From Candidatus Uhrbacteria bacterium (GTDB taxonomy: Bacteria > Patescibacteriota > Patescibacteriia > UBA9934 > GWF2-40-263), in the NCBI GenBank assembly GCA_016235605.1, contig JACRJW010000002.1, positions 1 through 37,278 on the forward strand: a stretch of DNA of 37,278 bases, written 5' to 3'. Below, piece after piece: positions 2,814 to 37,278 of this stretch. The stretch's first letter is position 1. Every line of letters begins with the position of its first letter. A program made the translations under genes and the position numbers. A model generated the notes under the pieces. It was not told where the DNA came from and made no database searches. It worked only from the letters and a program-made list of their open reading frames with translations.

Positions 2814-3527
2814 ATGAACCATGAACGCCCAAAAGTCGGAACCGCTGTCATCATCGTCAAGGACGGAAACGTTTTGATGGGACGACGCAAAGGAGCGCAC
2901 GGAGAAGGAACCTGGTGCCCGCCCGGTGGGCATTTGGAATTTGGAGAATCGTGGGAAGAGTGCGTACGGCGAGAGACCATGGAGGAAGCTGGAATTGAAA
3001 TCCAAAACGTGCGGTTCGTAGGTGCCGTGAATAATCACGAGCCTGATTGGGGTACGCACTACATCACGCTGTTCATGCAAGCAGAGTATCTCAGAGGCGA
3101 AGTGAGAAACTGTGAACCAGAAAAGTGTTCAGGCTGGGAGTGGTTTAGCTGGGAGCAACTTCCCTCTCCCCTATTTGCTCCTGTCGTAAACTTCCTGCGC
3201 CAGGGCTATCACCCCCTTGCCCGACGACATGACAAACTCGTTCGCGACAAAATCGTGGAGATCATCCAGGCCGCTGGTGGAGTGGCGGACTCTTACACGG
3301 CTGACGACCAAGAGTACAAAGATCGACTCCAAACGAAACTCTGCGAGGAAGTCCTTGAATATCTAGAAAGCGAAGAACCTGAGGAGCTTGCCGACATCCT
3401 TGAAGTCGTCCAAAGCCTCACGGCTCTCACGGGGACGAACCGCGAACAGCTCCAACTCATCCAATCAAAAAAACGCGAGGAGCGCGGAGGATTTGAAAAA
3501 CGAATCGTTCTCACAGAGACCCGATGA
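2814..3527 (+). CDS. NUDIX hydrolase fused to a MazG-like/phosphoribosyl-ATP-pyrophosphohydrolase-like domain
   Basis: Nudix box [24 protein letters not shown]-terminal [18 protein letters not shown]...[24 protein letters not shown] resembles noncanonical NTP pyrophosphatases. Confidence 0.85.
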
Positions 3528-3699
3528 CTCACCGTGCCCAGGAGTGTTGAAAAACCGTCAGGAAGGCCGCGTTCATCTTTCGCCAGGCACCATGCCTGTT
3601 TCTTGCGGCCTGAGTGACGAGGGGCGCCGGGTAGGACGGTTGGGAATCAACGATGGTTGGGGCGACCCCGTGTTTTGAAACAGTCCTGGGCACGGTGAG
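3528..3699 (+). ncRNA. Candidate structured RNA family 1, copy A
   Basis: Closing stem TCACCGTGCCCAGGA (3529-3543)/TCCTGGGCACGGTGA (3684-3698), plus C3528-G3699. AACCGTC (3553-3559)/GACGGTT (3635-3641) crosses GGGGCGCC (3621-3628)/GGCGACCCC (3661-3669). Variable hairpin GGCCGC/GCGGCC. Confidence 0.75.
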
Positions 3700-5194: not shown

Positions 5195-5201
5195 TTGAGA
5201 G

Positions 5202-5325
5202 ACCTTTGCAAAACTCGATGAGATTGCGTTGAACGGGCTGTCGAGCCCCACGAAACGTAGGTTATCTACGTAGAGTGGGGTCGACGGGTGCCCGTGAGAC
5301 GCAAGATCGCGAGTTTTGCGGAGGT
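5202..5325 (+). repeat. Long imperfect hairpin element, family 2 copy 1
   Basis: ACCTTTGCAAAACTCG/CGAGTTTTGCGGAGGT, TTGCGT/ACGCAA, ACGGGC/GCCCGT, TCGA(G)CCCCAC/GTGGGGTCGA, CGTAG/CTACG. Wobble pairs favour the + strand as RNA. Confidence 0.75.
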
Positions 5326-5330
5326 ATCAT

Positions 5331-10953: not shown

Positions 10954-10982
10954 AGGATACTAAATGGCTGGTTTTCTGTCAA
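10954..10982 (-). promoter_or_regulatory. Sigma70-like promoter for rplJ-rplL
   Basis: Minus strand TTGACA (10982-10977), 17-nt spacer, TATCCT (10959-10954). Confidence 0.65.
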
Positions 10983-10987
10983 TGTGC

Positions 10988-11083
10988 CTGGATTGGGGTC
11001 AGGTCGGGCTACGGGCTTTTTTTGAATGCGGACATTTTTTCGTATATACGAACTTTCGTCCGCACAAAAGAAAACGGCCGCTC
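10988..11083. repeat. Intergenic module R1, repeated at 12066-12159
   Basis: CTGGATTGGGGTCAGGTCGGGCTACGGGCTTTTT...TTTTCGTATATACGAACTTTCGTCCGCACAAAAGAAAACGGCCGCTCG; near-identical to R2 apart from a short variable stretch. Confidence 0.88.
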
Positions 11084-11100
11084 GTGGGAGCTGCCGTCCG
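11067..11100 (-). terminator. Intrinsic terminator of the PP2C gene
   Basis: Minus strand GACGGCAGCTCccacGAGCGGCCGTTTTCTTTT. Confidence 0.65.
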
Positions 11101-11979: not shown

Positions 11980-12065
11980 GGTTCACTCCTTCTATGACGA
12001 AACATAGTCCCGTTGATTCAGGACCTGACATTGTTCTCTCTTCTCGTCTTTTTGTCAAAATACGT

Positions 12066-12159
12066 CTGGATTGGGGTCAGGTCGGGTTATGGGCTTTTTA
12101 TTGCGAGAGATTTTCGTATATACGAACTTTCGTCCGCACAAAAGAAAACAGCCGCTCGG
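12066..12159. repeat. Intergenic module R2, repeat of R1
   Basis: CTGGATTGGGGTCAGGTCGGGTTATGGGCTTTTT...TTTTCGTATATACGAACTTTCGTCCGCACAAAAGAAAACAGCCGCTCG. Confidence 0.88.
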
Positions 12160-12171
12160 AGGAGACGGCTG
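12144..12171 (-). terminator. Intrinsic terminator of the pyrH-like gene, within R2
   Basis: Minus strand CAGCCGTCTCctCCGAGCGGCTGTTTTCTTTT. Confidence 0.6.
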
Positions 12172-14692: not shown

Positions 14693-14818
14693 AGGCCTCT
14701 GAAAAACTTGATGAGATTGCGATGCACGGGGAAGCCAGCCGCCGAGGCGTAGCGATAGCTACGTTGAGGTGGTGGCGGGGCCCCGCAAGTCGCAAGATCG
14801 CAAGTTTTGCAGAGGCCT
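14693..14818 (+). repeat. Long imperfect hairpin element, family 2 copy 2
   Basis: AGGCCTCTG.AAAACTTG/CAAGTTTT.CAGAGGCCT, TTGCGA/TCGCAA, CGGGG/CCCCG, GCC(A)GCCGCC/GGTGGTGGC, CGTAGC/GCTACG. Exactly fills the gap between xseA start and the next stop codon. Confidence 0.75.
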
Positions 14819-23614: not shown

Positions 23615-24229
23615 ATGCCACCACTCACCAAAAAACAATCTGAGGTGCTGGAGTTTATTCGCGGTCATATTGAAGACAACGGCTACGCGCCGTCGTATCG
23701 CGAAATCGCGGAGCACTTCGACCTCTCTTCCCCTGCCACCGTGCATGGCCACATCCAGTCGCTCGTGGAAAAAGGTCTCATCAACATTGGTGAAGATGGC
23801 GAAGCACGGTCAATCGAGCTTGTACAAGAGGCTGAAAACGGCCCATCGGTTTTCCTTCCTTTGCTTGGACTCATCACTGCAGGTGTGCCGATTGAAGCCG
23901 TAGAGCAGAACGAAGCCATGGCCGTGCCCGCGGACTTCGTCATGGACAGCGCAAACTCGTATGTGTTGCGCGTCAAAGGACGATCCATGATCGAAGATGG
24001 AATTTTAGATGGCGACTTCGTAGTGATCGAACGCAATCCCTCTCCGCGTAACGGCGAGGTCGTCGTCGCCCTGCTCGACAACGCGTTTGCTACGCTCAAA
24101 CGTTTTTACCGAGAACGCAACCGTATTCGTCTGCAACCTGCTAATAGTTCGATGGATCCACTGTACGTCCAAGACTGCATTATCCAGGGAGTGGTCCGAG
24201 CTGTAATTCGTAAATTTCAGCCTGTGTGA
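23615..24229 (+). CDS. lexA: LexA repressor
   Basis: LTKKQSEVLEFIRGHIEDNGYAPSYREIAEHFDLSSPATVHGHIQSLVEKGLI; cleavage-type AG in LITAGVPIEA; VKGRSMIEDGILDGDFVVI; Ser/Lys S24 peptidase fold. Confidence 0.98.
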   Translation: MPPLTKKQSEVLEFIRGHIEDNGYAPSYREIAEHFDLSSPATVHGHIQSLVEKGLINIGEDGEARSIELVQEAENGPSVFLPLLGLITAGVPIEAVEQNEAMAVPADFVMDSANSYVLRVKGRSMIEDGILDGDFVVIERNPSPRNGEVVVALLDNAFATLKRFYRERNRIRLQPANSSMDPLYVQDCIIQGVVRAVIRKFQPV

Positions 24230-24230
24230 A

Positions 24231-24410
24231 AGTTCAGCAAGATAGAGCTTACAGGCAAAAACCGTCACGGAGGGCCGTACAAAACCCTTCGACGGGCTCA
24301 GGGTGTATTCACACACGGCCCGAGTGACGAGGGGCGCCGGGTAAAACGGCCAGGAAAATGGATCGATGGGCGACCCCGTGTTTTTGACGAAAGCTCTATC
24401 TTGCTGGACT
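24231..24410 (+). ncRNA. Candidate structured RNA family 1, copy B
   Basis: Closing stem GTTCAGCAAGATAGAGCTT (24232-24250)/AAGCTCTATCTTGCTGGAC (24391-24409); GGGCCGT/ACGGCCC; CCGT (24262)/ACGG (24346) crosses GGGGCGCC (24331)/GGCGACCCC (24369). Confidence 0.77.
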
Positions 24411-26358: not shown

Positions 26359-26475
26359 GGCACTTCTGCAAGACACGTAAATTTTTGTTGAACGGTCTGG
26401 CGAGCCCCACATAACAGTCAGCGTGGGGTCGGACAGACCTGAAATAAAAATTCATGTGTCTTGCAGAAGTCTGCC
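26359..26475 (+). repeat. Long imperfect hairpin element, family 2 copy 3
   Basis: GGCACTTCTGCAAGACAC.../...GTGTCTTGCAGAAGTCTGCC; inner TTGAACGGTCTGGCGAGCCCCAC...GTGGGGTCGGACAGACC shares sequence with copy 1. Confidence 0.75.
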
Positions 26476-35173: not shown

Positions 35174-35893
35174 TTAGACGGCCTGCTCGCGAAGTTGCTC
35201 GAGATCTTTTTCTCGACGATCAATGTCCGCAAGAATCTCCTGAGCGTTTTTTGGAGCCGTAAGATTTTTATGTTTAAACGCGCACAGGTCGCGCACCGGA
35301 CATGCCCAGCATCGCGGGGAGCCAATACAGACATACCGGCCGTGCTTCACAAACACACGATTCACTGTTTTGTACCAAGCCCGTGGAATGAGTTTCAACA
35401 GCGCCGCTTCTGTCTTCTCTGGTGTTTTTGTCTTCACCCAGCCTAATCGATTTGTGACGCGATGTACATGGGTATCGACCGCGATCGCTGGCGTATTGAA
35501 GCTGGCGACGAGCACCGCGCTCGCCGTCTTGCGCCCAACACCTGAGAGCTTCACAAGTTCATCCATCGTCGAAGGAATCTTTCCTCCGTACTTGCCAACC
35601 ACCTGCTCCGCCATCTTCTTCAAATTCTTGGCCTTCTGCCGGAACATTCCAATCGCGTTGATCTTGCCTTCGATCTGCTTGGTCGTCGCCTTCGCAAGTT
35701 TCGCCACCGTCGGGAAGACCTTAAAGAATCCTGGCATGAGCTTCAATACCTGCTCGTCGCGCGTCCGTGCCGACAACATAACCGCAACAAGATTCTGGTA
35801 CGGATTCCCGATCTCCATGGCGCCAGGATTTTTCCAGCGAGTCTTGAGTTTTTTTAGAACCGATAGAATCTCATTTTTCATACTTTCTGACAT
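35174..35893 (-). CDS. nth: Endonuclease III
   Basis: NPYQNLVAVMLSARTRDEQVLKLMPGFF...LSGVGRKTASAVLVASFNTPAIAVDTHVHRVTNRLGW...CIGSPRCWACPVRDLC. Confidence 0.95.
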   Translation of the reverse strand: MSESMKNEILSVLKKLKTRWKNPGAMEIGNPYQNLVAVMLSARTRDEQVLKLMPGFFKVFPTVAKLAKATTKQIEGKINAIGMFRQKAKNLKKMAEQVVGKYGGKIPSTMDELVKLSGVGRKTASAVLVASFNTPAIAVDTHVHRVTNRLGWVKTKTPEKTEAALLKLIPRAWYKTVNRVFVKHGRYVCIGSPRCWACPVRDLCAFKHKNLTAPKNAQEILADIDRREKDLEQLREQAV

Positions 35894-36060
35894 CCGACAG
35901 GAATGTTCTTCTTAAAAACCGTAACGGAGCCTGGCTGAGTTCCACAATGCACAACATCTTGCATCGTGCCAGGCGAGTTACGAGGGGCGCCGATGCCGAC
36001 GGTGGGTAAAATTCTACGATGGGCGACCCCGTGTTTTTGAGAAGAACGTTCCTGTCGGAT
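35892..36060 (+). ncRNA. Candidate structured RNA family 1, copy C
   Basis: Closing stem ATCCGACAGGAATGTTCTTCT (35892-35912)/AGAAGAACGTTCCTGTCGGAT (36040-36060); GCCTGGC/GCCAGGC; ACCGT (35918)/ACGGT (35999) crosses GGGGCGCC (35984)/GGCGACCCC (36022). Confidence 0.77.
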
Positions 36061-36062
36061 GG

Positions 36063-37278
36063 CTACAGCAATGGTTGCCCCGTCATTTCCGCGGGCTGTG
36101 GAATTCCCATCACCGCAAGAACCGTCGGCGCGACATCAGCCAAAATCCCCACCGGTGACAACAGCGACAAATCTCCTTCAGGCACTTCTCCCGACATCGA
36201 CGGTTGACCCTCAAGACGTTTATTGATGACCACAAATGGCACGGGATTCGTGGCGTGTTCCTTATCCATTTCGCCCGTGCGCAAATTTTTCATTTCCTCG
36301 GCGTTGCCGTGATCGGCGATGATGAGCACGTTCCCATCACGCGAGAGTGTTTCTTCCACGAGTTTGCCAAGACATTCATCGACAGCCTCAACTCCTTTGA
36401 TCGTCGCATCCACATTTCCTGTGTGTCCTACCATATCGGGATTGGCAAAATTCATCACGATAAAATCAAACCTGTTCTCGCGCATCTCCTTCACAACTCG
36501 ATCAGTGAGTCCATACGCGCTCATCTCAGGTGCTTGGTCGTAACTGGCGACCTTGGGGGAGGGAATAATCACGCGTTCCTCGCCGGGAAATGGATCTTCC
36601 TTTGTACCGTTTAAAAAAAACGTGACGTGCGCATACTTCTCGGTCTCAGCGATGTGGAGTTGCTTGAGTCCTGCTTTTGAAATCGTCTCGGCCAAAGTTT
36701 CTTGAATCGCCTCAGGAGCAAAGGCAACCTCCACCGGCAGACCTGCCTCATACTCAACCATGGTCACGGCAAACAGATTCTCCACCCGCTTGCGCTGAAA
36801 GTTCTCAAACATCGGGAGCACGAACGCCTTTGTGAGTTCACGCATGCGATCAGGACGAAAATTAAAAAAGATGACCGCGTCGTTTTCTTGGACCATCCCT
36901 ACTGGCTGGCCATCCTGGACAATCACGGTCGGGATAAACTCCTCGTCGTACACTTCCTTTTGATAGGACGCTTTGATCGCCGAGAGCGAATCGTCTGCGT
37001 GTCCCCCTTGGCCCAGTACCATGGCGTTGTACGCTTTCTCAATCCTGTCCCATCGGTTGTCGCGATCCATCGCAAAATAACGACCGGACAAAGACGCAAT
37101 TTTTCCAACGCCCAACTTCTTCATTTTTTCCTGAAGCGTCGTGACAAAATCAATCGCCACACTCGGCAACGTGTCACGGCCATCCAAAATTGCCTGCACG
37201 AATACGTCTTTCACGCCCTTTTTTTTTGCAAACGCGAGCAGGGCGTGACAATGCTTGTCCATGGAATGCACACGGCCC
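36063..37278 (-). CDS. gpmI: 2,3-bisphosphoglycerate-independent phosphoglycerate mutase, N-terminus cut by right edge
   Basis: HSMDKHCHALLAFAKKKGVKDVFVQAILDGRDTLP...SGRYFAMDRDNRWDRIEKAYNAM...IFFNFRPDRMRELTKAF...ANPDMVGHTGNVDATIKGVEAVDECLGKL...LIIADHGNAEEM. Open at edge. Confidence 0.95.
   Translation of the reverse strand, partial: GRVHSMDKHCHALLAFAKKKGVKDVFVQAILDGRDTLPSVAIDFVTTLQEKMKKLGVGKIASLSGRYFAMDRDNRWDRIEKAYNAMVLGQGGHADDSLSAIKASYQKEVYDEEFIPTVIVQDGQPVGMVQENDAVIFFNFRPDRMRELTKAFVLPMFENFQRKRVENLFAVTMVEYEAGLPVEVAFAPEAIQETLAETISKAGLKQLHIAETEKYAHVTFFLNGTKEDPFPGEERVIIPSPKVASYDQAPEMSAYGLTDRVVKEMRENRFDFIVMNFANPDMVGHTGNVDATIKGVEAVDECLGKLVEETLSRDGNVLIIADHGNAEEMKNLRTGEMDKEHATNPVPFVVINKRLEGQPSMSGEVPEGDLSLLSPVGILADVAPTVLAVMGIPQPAEMTGQPLL

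What the first reader, a model, noticed from the sequence alone, without database searches (positions are those of the whole stretch)
3528..3699. Unassigned pseudoknotted structured RNA, copy A (NUDIX/glycosyltransferase gap)
One of three dispersed copies. A perfect 15-bp closing stem brackets a core that is nearly identical in all copies: ACCGUnA..., GAGUnACGAGGGGCGCC, ACGG, then GAUGG(G)GCGACCCCGUGUUUU. The A stem (AACCGUC/GACGGUU) and B stem (GGGGCGCC/GGCGACCCC) interleave as A-B-A'-B', an H-type pseudoknot. The closing stem and the variable hairpin differ in sequence between copies but keep pairing, so covariation is visible directly. The copy starts right after the NUDIX stop codon.
Basis: seen in the sequence. 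Interest (0 to 1): 0.9.

Follow-up and report, generated by a model that had tools for sequence, protein, structure and literature searches.

The report
Mobile palindromic repeat at gene ends
The three copies belong to a small family of mobile, non-coding DNA palindromes that sit directly against stop codons in a few Uhrbacteria genomes; they fold strongly and keep their pairing while the arm sequence changes, but they look like jumping repeats (possibly used as transcription terminators) rather than a new pseudoknotted regulatory RNA.

Summary
The repeat is real. Eight intact copies lie in this 1.2-Mb Uhrbacteria genome, five in a sister species and two divergent ones in a third genome of the family. 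None of the other 40 family genomes searched has one, and nothing reaches an Rfam threshold. The fold is real but not as described. Thirteen copies support a three-way junction: P1 (long arms plus AAAAC/GUUUU), P2 (CGUCAC/GUGACG plus a distal helix) and P3 (GGGGCGCC/GGCGACCCC). P2 has double changes at 9 of its 13 pairs. The proposed pseudoknot reuses P2 bases and shows no covariation.

The element is a mobile palindrome. At site A it is missing from two congeners and three other relatives. In the sister species the site-A core is inverted relative to the genes and has unrelated arms. All 12 copies with surveyable arms end within 7 nt of a stop codon (5.5% of random intergenic points lie within 10 nt). 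Arms differ between copies yet stay self-complementary.

Best reading: a non-autonomous MITE/BOX-like repeat whose arms are kept complementary by replication template switching, possibly serving as a bidirectional terminator. Mobility is shown by comparison; termination and template switching are inferred. Covariation here is not proof of RNA function.

The parts
3528..3699 (+). Element copy A (whole palindrome), between convergent NUDIX and downstream gene
   Evidence: flush with NUDIX stop at 3527
3528..3550 (+). Copy A 5' arm (P1 outer; sequence unique to this site)
   Evidence: (I3)
3677..3699 (+). Copy A 3' arm (P1 outer)
   Evidence: (I3)
3551..3555 (+). Inner P1, AAAAC, invariant in 13 copies
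   Evidence: helix 1
3672..3676 (+). Inner P1, GUUUU, U-tract after P3
3556..3570 (+). P2 5' strand (CGUCA + AGGCCGC)
3605..3619 (+). P2 3' strand (GCGGCCU + UGACG)
3621..3628 (+). P3 5' strand GGGGCGCC
3661..3669 (+). P3 3' strand GGCGACCCC
24231..24410 (+). Element copy B, 2 nt after the stop of a LexA-like gene (23615-24229)
   Evidence: no Z element at the G002 orthologous site
35891..36061 (+). Element copy C, 2 nt from the stop of a minus-strand phosphoglycerate mutase gene (36063-37271)
   Evidence: absent at the G002 orthologous site (about 39-nt intergenic gap)
2814..3527 (+). NUDIX gene whose stop codon abuts copy A
   Evidence: PF00293
3710..5251 (-).
   Evidence: no Pfam hit at E<=0.001

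Best explanation
The finding is one copy of a short (about 170-190 bp), non-coding, dispersed palindromic mobile element, called 'Z' here. A conserved core of about 125 nt folds as a three-way junction and sits inside long inverted-repeat arms that differ at every site. Shown by comparison: it has inserted at gene ends directly against stop codons, is present or absent between species, and lies in opposite orientations at one orthologous site. Inferred: it is moved in trans by an unidentified enzyme. Also inferred: arms stay complementary because one arm is recopied from the other by template switching at the replication fork, which also explains the inverted core. Also inferred: once in place it is tolerated or kept because it ends transcripts from both sides (P3 followed by GUGUUUU on one strand, P2 followed by GGUUUUU on the other). 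I put about 0.75 on mobile palindromic repeat, about 0.6 on template switching for the arms, and about 0.4 on real terminator function.
For: Repeat family: 8 copies own genome, 5 in G002, 2 in G016. Insertion polymorphism at site A: the matched C-terminal ends of the two convergent neighbours are about 7 nt apart in G001, 11 in G003, 13 in G016, 37 in G028 and 54 in G013, against about 185 in G000/G002. Site C has a 39-nt gap and site L002 a 7-nt gap without element in G002; site L001 holds a family-Y palindrome with other arms in G002. Inversion: A and L016 are at the same gene pair with opposite core orientation, and their cores are each other's best match (82%). Arms: own-pair complementarity score mean 38, cross-pair mean 12; no arm matches elsewhere beyond one marginal 18-nt hit and the L006/L022 orthologue pair. 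Orthologous L006/L022 arms show paired double changes (GGTC/GACC to GGGA/TCCC). Stop codons: 12/12 arms end within 7 nt of a stop, random 5.5% within 10 nt, P=8e-16. Fold. Template switching homogenises inverted-repeat arms and inverts spacers (PMC8604942) and can maintain perfect stems (PMC8794818).
Against: No transposase or target-site duplication was found for Z. Unlike ordinary MITEs, the terminal repeats are not shared between copies. The core is strongly conserved with a nearly invariant P3, which suggests selection beyond passive mobility. Three of seven testable G000 sites are shared with G002, so the family moves slowly. The terminator scan accepted only the forward strand, with short hairpins; no expression data exist. 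Copy L015 has arms no more complementary than background.
Confidence: 0.7

Rival explanations
1. A cis-acting or trans-acting structured RNA (riboswitch-like or small RNA gene) that has been copied to several loci; the three-way junction is its functional fold.
For: Covariation 0.239 vs 0.080 in shuffles, 0/500; fold z -6.2; sharply conserved core; no Rfam match.
Against: Always after stop codons, both orientations relative to the adjacent gene; absent from 40 of 43 family genomes; absent at the same site in congeners; inverted at one orthologous site; antisense strand folds equally unusually well (z -7.3); unrelated flanking genes.
Confidence: 0.15
2. A conserved core module that jumps into the loops of existing hairpins (terminators or other palindromes); arms belong to the target, not to the element.
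For: Arms unrelated between Z copies; in family X, arm identity and core identity to consensus are uncorrelated (rho -0.01), e.g. core 0.95 with arm 0.38; different core families occupy the same gene end in two species (site L001).
Against: None of the four G002 sites lacking Z keeps the G000 arm as an empty hairpin; many empty X sites have near-zero gaps, so arms and core are missing together.
Confidence: 0.12
3. Purely a transcription-terminator class: long 3' hairpins built at operon ends by selection, with a shared core by common descent or gene conversion rather than mobility.
For: 12/12 Z and 6/6 Y against stop codons; P3 followed by GUGUUUU; terminator-like match in copy A.
Against: Empty orthologous gene ends without the element exist; the core is far larger than a terminator needs; if transcription stopped at the inner U-tract the outer 3' arm would not be in the RNA.
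Confidence: 0.1
4. H-type pseudoknot RNA as proposed by the first reader.
For: AACCGUC/GACGGUU complementary 7/7 in two copies.
Against: Same bases form covarying P2; 35% cells paired and zero double changes in the alignment (alignment in that loop is imprecise); uncompensated mismatches in G002 copies.
Confidence: 0.03

Closest known systems
BOX / RUP / SPRITE repeats of Streptococcus pneumoniae (PMC3049150)
   Same: Short non-coding dispersed repeats with tightly paired predicted RNA structure, some supplying gene 3' ends and stop codons; SPRITE is terminator-like; thought to be non-autonomous parasites.
   Different: There the terminal repeats belong to the family sequence; in Z arms are unique to each site. 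No direct sequence comparison with BOX was made.
[quoted passage not shown]
   Same: Short, non-coding, palindromic ends, insertion polymorphism.
   Different: No shared terminal repeat, no demonstrated target-site duplication, no matching transposase.
REP/BIME palindromes
   Same: Extragenic palindromes, commonly at 3' ends of genes.
   Different: Z is about 170-190 bp with a 125-nt branched core, not a 20-40 bp hairpin; no RAYT link tested.
Bidirectional intrinsic terminators
   Same: GC-rich stems flanked by A- and U-tracts between convergent genes.
   Different: Much larger, branched, with long outer arms beyond the U-tract.

Membership tests
MITE | Short and non-coding, dispersed in several copies | tested here: met
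   8+5+2 copies, about 170-190 bp
MITE | Insertion polymorphism at orthologous sites | tested here: met
   sites A, B, C, L001, L002
MITE | Terminal inverted repeats shared by copies | tested here: not met
   arms unrelated between copies
MITE | Target-site duplication | tested here: inconclusive
   none visible for Z at diverged empty sites; family X shows apparent 3-5 nt duplications
MITE | Ends match those of an autonomous element with transposase | tested here: inconclusive
   no larger element with both Z core ends found; X-like ends at larger spacing frame only host-like genes
Rfam families | Score at or above a gathering threshold | tested here: not met
H-type pseudoknot RNA | Covarying interleaved A-B-A'-B' helices | tested here: not met
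   B (P3) supported, A not
Intrinsic terminator | GC-rich hairpin followed by U-tract at gene 3' end | tested here: met
   (forward strand; reverse strand by inspection only)
Intrinsic terminator | Transcripts end there | not testable with these tools
   no RNA data
Riboswitch / cis-regulatory RNA | Fixed orientation in the 5' leader of a regulated gene set | tested here: not met
   3' positions, mixed orientation, unrelated genes

The most novel reading that the evidence does not exclude
Conserved structured cores (Z, X, Y, V) are mobile modules whose long flanking arms are either newly written at each insertion site or rapidly rewritten afterwards, so that one core lives inside many unrelated perfect palindromes, preferentially against stop codons, giving the genome a pool of exchangeable, invertible gene-end hairpins.
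Probability: 0.2. Interest if true: 0.75.

Novelty: new variant of a known kind. Interest (0 to 1): 0.45.

Why it matters
It shows a natural case where 'covariation without sequence conservation', the usual signature of functional RNA, may come from a DNA mutational process and mobility, a caution for structured-RNA discovery in metagenomes. It also points to gene ends in Uhrbacteria being repeatedly colonised by several families of long palindromes, which could reshape transcription termination in a reduced genome.

Tried and rejected
Rfam at gathering and relaxed thresholds: nothing. Pseudoknot A: rejected. Phage and plasmid collections: no match; viral contigs: none. Class and phylum scans with R1/R2 gave nothing outside G000/G002, but few candidates per genome were scored there, so weak relatives could be missed. 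A single Halorubrum pattern hit (L025) was judged chance and not followed. Looking for an autonomous element with Z ends or X-like ends found only half copies or host-like genes. A simple age model for arm divergence in family X failed: core and arm identity are uncorrelated.

Full report
OBSERVATION. The window holds three copies of a 170-180 nt palindrome with an identical ACGAGGGGCGCC...GGCGACCCCGTGTTTT core. The pattern occurs 7 times in the 1.2-Mb genome and never in the backwards control. A covariance model of 7 copies finds 8. No Rfam family matches. Two other genomes of the family hold relatives: G002 in the same genus (5 copies) and G016 (2 divergent copies). The other 40 of 43 family genomes have none. 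Pattern scans name the carriers as Candidatus Uhrbacteria. Class and phylum samples, phages, plasmids and viral contigs gave nothing further, with the reservation that broad scans scored few candidates per genome.

STRUCTURE. On 13 aligned cores RNAalifold recovers, without being told, P2 (columns 10-15/83-88 and 19-25/74-80) and P3 (90-97/130-138); ten pairs show double changes. For the full structure 99.7% of cells pair, with a covariation score of 0.239 against 0.080 in shuffles (0/500) and 0.004-0.036 when slid. Adding a divergent G016 copy gives a further double change in P3 (GC to CG) and, by inspection, a P2 of CGUGUC/GACACG. The minimum-energy fold of copy A is this three-way junction closed by the arms: -95 kcal/mol, z -6.2. 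The complementary strand is equally unusual, z -7.3. The alignment in that loop is imprecise, so, which scores each copy directly, is the better test.

ARMS. Each copy except L015 is closed by a long near-perfect helix whose sequence is unrelated to that of other copies: own-pair score mean 38, cross-pair mean 12. The arms match nothing else convincingly in the two genomes except between orthologous copies L006 and L022. Those two show paired changes, GGTC/GACC to GGGA/TCCC.

LOCATION. All 12 copies with surveyable arms end within 7 nt of a stop codon; 5.5% of random intergenic points lie within 10 nt (P=8e-16). Orientation relative to the abutted gene is mixed, and flanking genes are unrelated: NUDIX, LexA-like, phosphoglycerate mutase and others.

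MOBILITY. At site A the matched C-terminal ends of the two convergent neighbours are 7-54 nt apart in G001, G003, G013, G016 and G028, against about 185 nt in G000 and G002, so the element is an insertion present in two species. In G002 the core at this site is inverted relative to the genes and has other arms, yet its core is the best match of copy A (82%; tree support at that level is weak), which favours inversion in place over independent insertion. Sites C and L002 are empty in G002 (39 and 7 nt). Site B lacks Z there. Site L001 holds a palindrome of another family. Sites L006/L022 and L007/L018 are shared in the same orientation.

OTHER FAMILIES. The inverted-repeat survey found further families with the same plan: X (43 copies), Y (6) and V (4). 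X is strongly mobile: no X site with a two-flank orthologue is shared. In most of those sites the two flanks nearly abut in the other species (gaps mostly between about -25 and +40 nt), with a few larger gaps; in the clean cases arms and core are missing together. In X, arm and core identity to consensus are uncorrelated (rho -0.01), with one core 95% like consensus inside arms only 38% like it, still 90% self-complementary. So arms are rewritten faster than, or independently of, cores.

MECHANISM. Shown: repeat family, fold with covariation, stop-codon placement, presence/absence, opposite orientation at an orthologous site, arm replacement with kept complementarity. Inferred: transposition in trans. 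[quoted passage not shown] A bidirectional terminator role is inferred from position and from the P3-GUGUUUU layout; the scan supports the forward strand only.

COMPARISON. The closest known things are BOX/RUP/SPRITE repeats (PMC3049150), MITEs and REP elements. Z fails the MITE criterion of shared terminal repeats, and a target-site duplication could not be decided, so it is called MITE-like, not a MITE. A literature search for such repeats in Patescibacteria found nothing specific, which is weak evidence of novelty.

VERDICT. An ordinary class of object (mobile palindromic repeat) in an unusual form (site-specific complementary arms, invertible branched core, strict stop-codon placement). 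Interest 0.45.

Noticed in passing
window 5199-5328 and 14693-14818: Two copies of family X, a second palindromic repeat (arms like GAGACCTTTGCAAAACTCG, core ATGAGATTGCG...CGCAAGATCG); 43 copies in the held parts of G000 and G002, with apparent 3-5 nt target-site duplications and empty orthologous sites.
   Followed up: partly
window 26362-26470: One copy of family Y (GAACGGTCTGGCGAGCCCCAC...GTGGGGTCGGACAGACC) with 25-nt arms abutting a stop codon; all 6 Y copies lie within 10 nt of a stop.
   Followed up: partly
L030:1381-1577 (G000:C104): A Z 5' half (AAAACCGTCACGGA) directly before a family V palindrome, a possible composite or decayed element.
   Followed up: no
L032 contig end (G000:C8:38311-38334) and L031:207-220 (G000:C92): Half copies: a Z 3' half at a contig end that appears to read in frame into a glycosyltransferase-like ORF, and a Z 5' half upstream of another ORF.
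   Followed up: no
L001, L002, L004, L015, L018 P2 loops; L019 near its 3' end: CCTTCGACGGGCTCAGG-type sequences lie in the P2 loop of several copies, and one interrupts a G016 copy, as if another small repeat inserts into the element.
   Followed up: no
window 10972-11090 and 12050-12164: Direct repeats of about 50 nt containing TTGGGGTCAGGTCGGG; similar sequences form short-loop hairpins near stops in G002.
   Followed up: no
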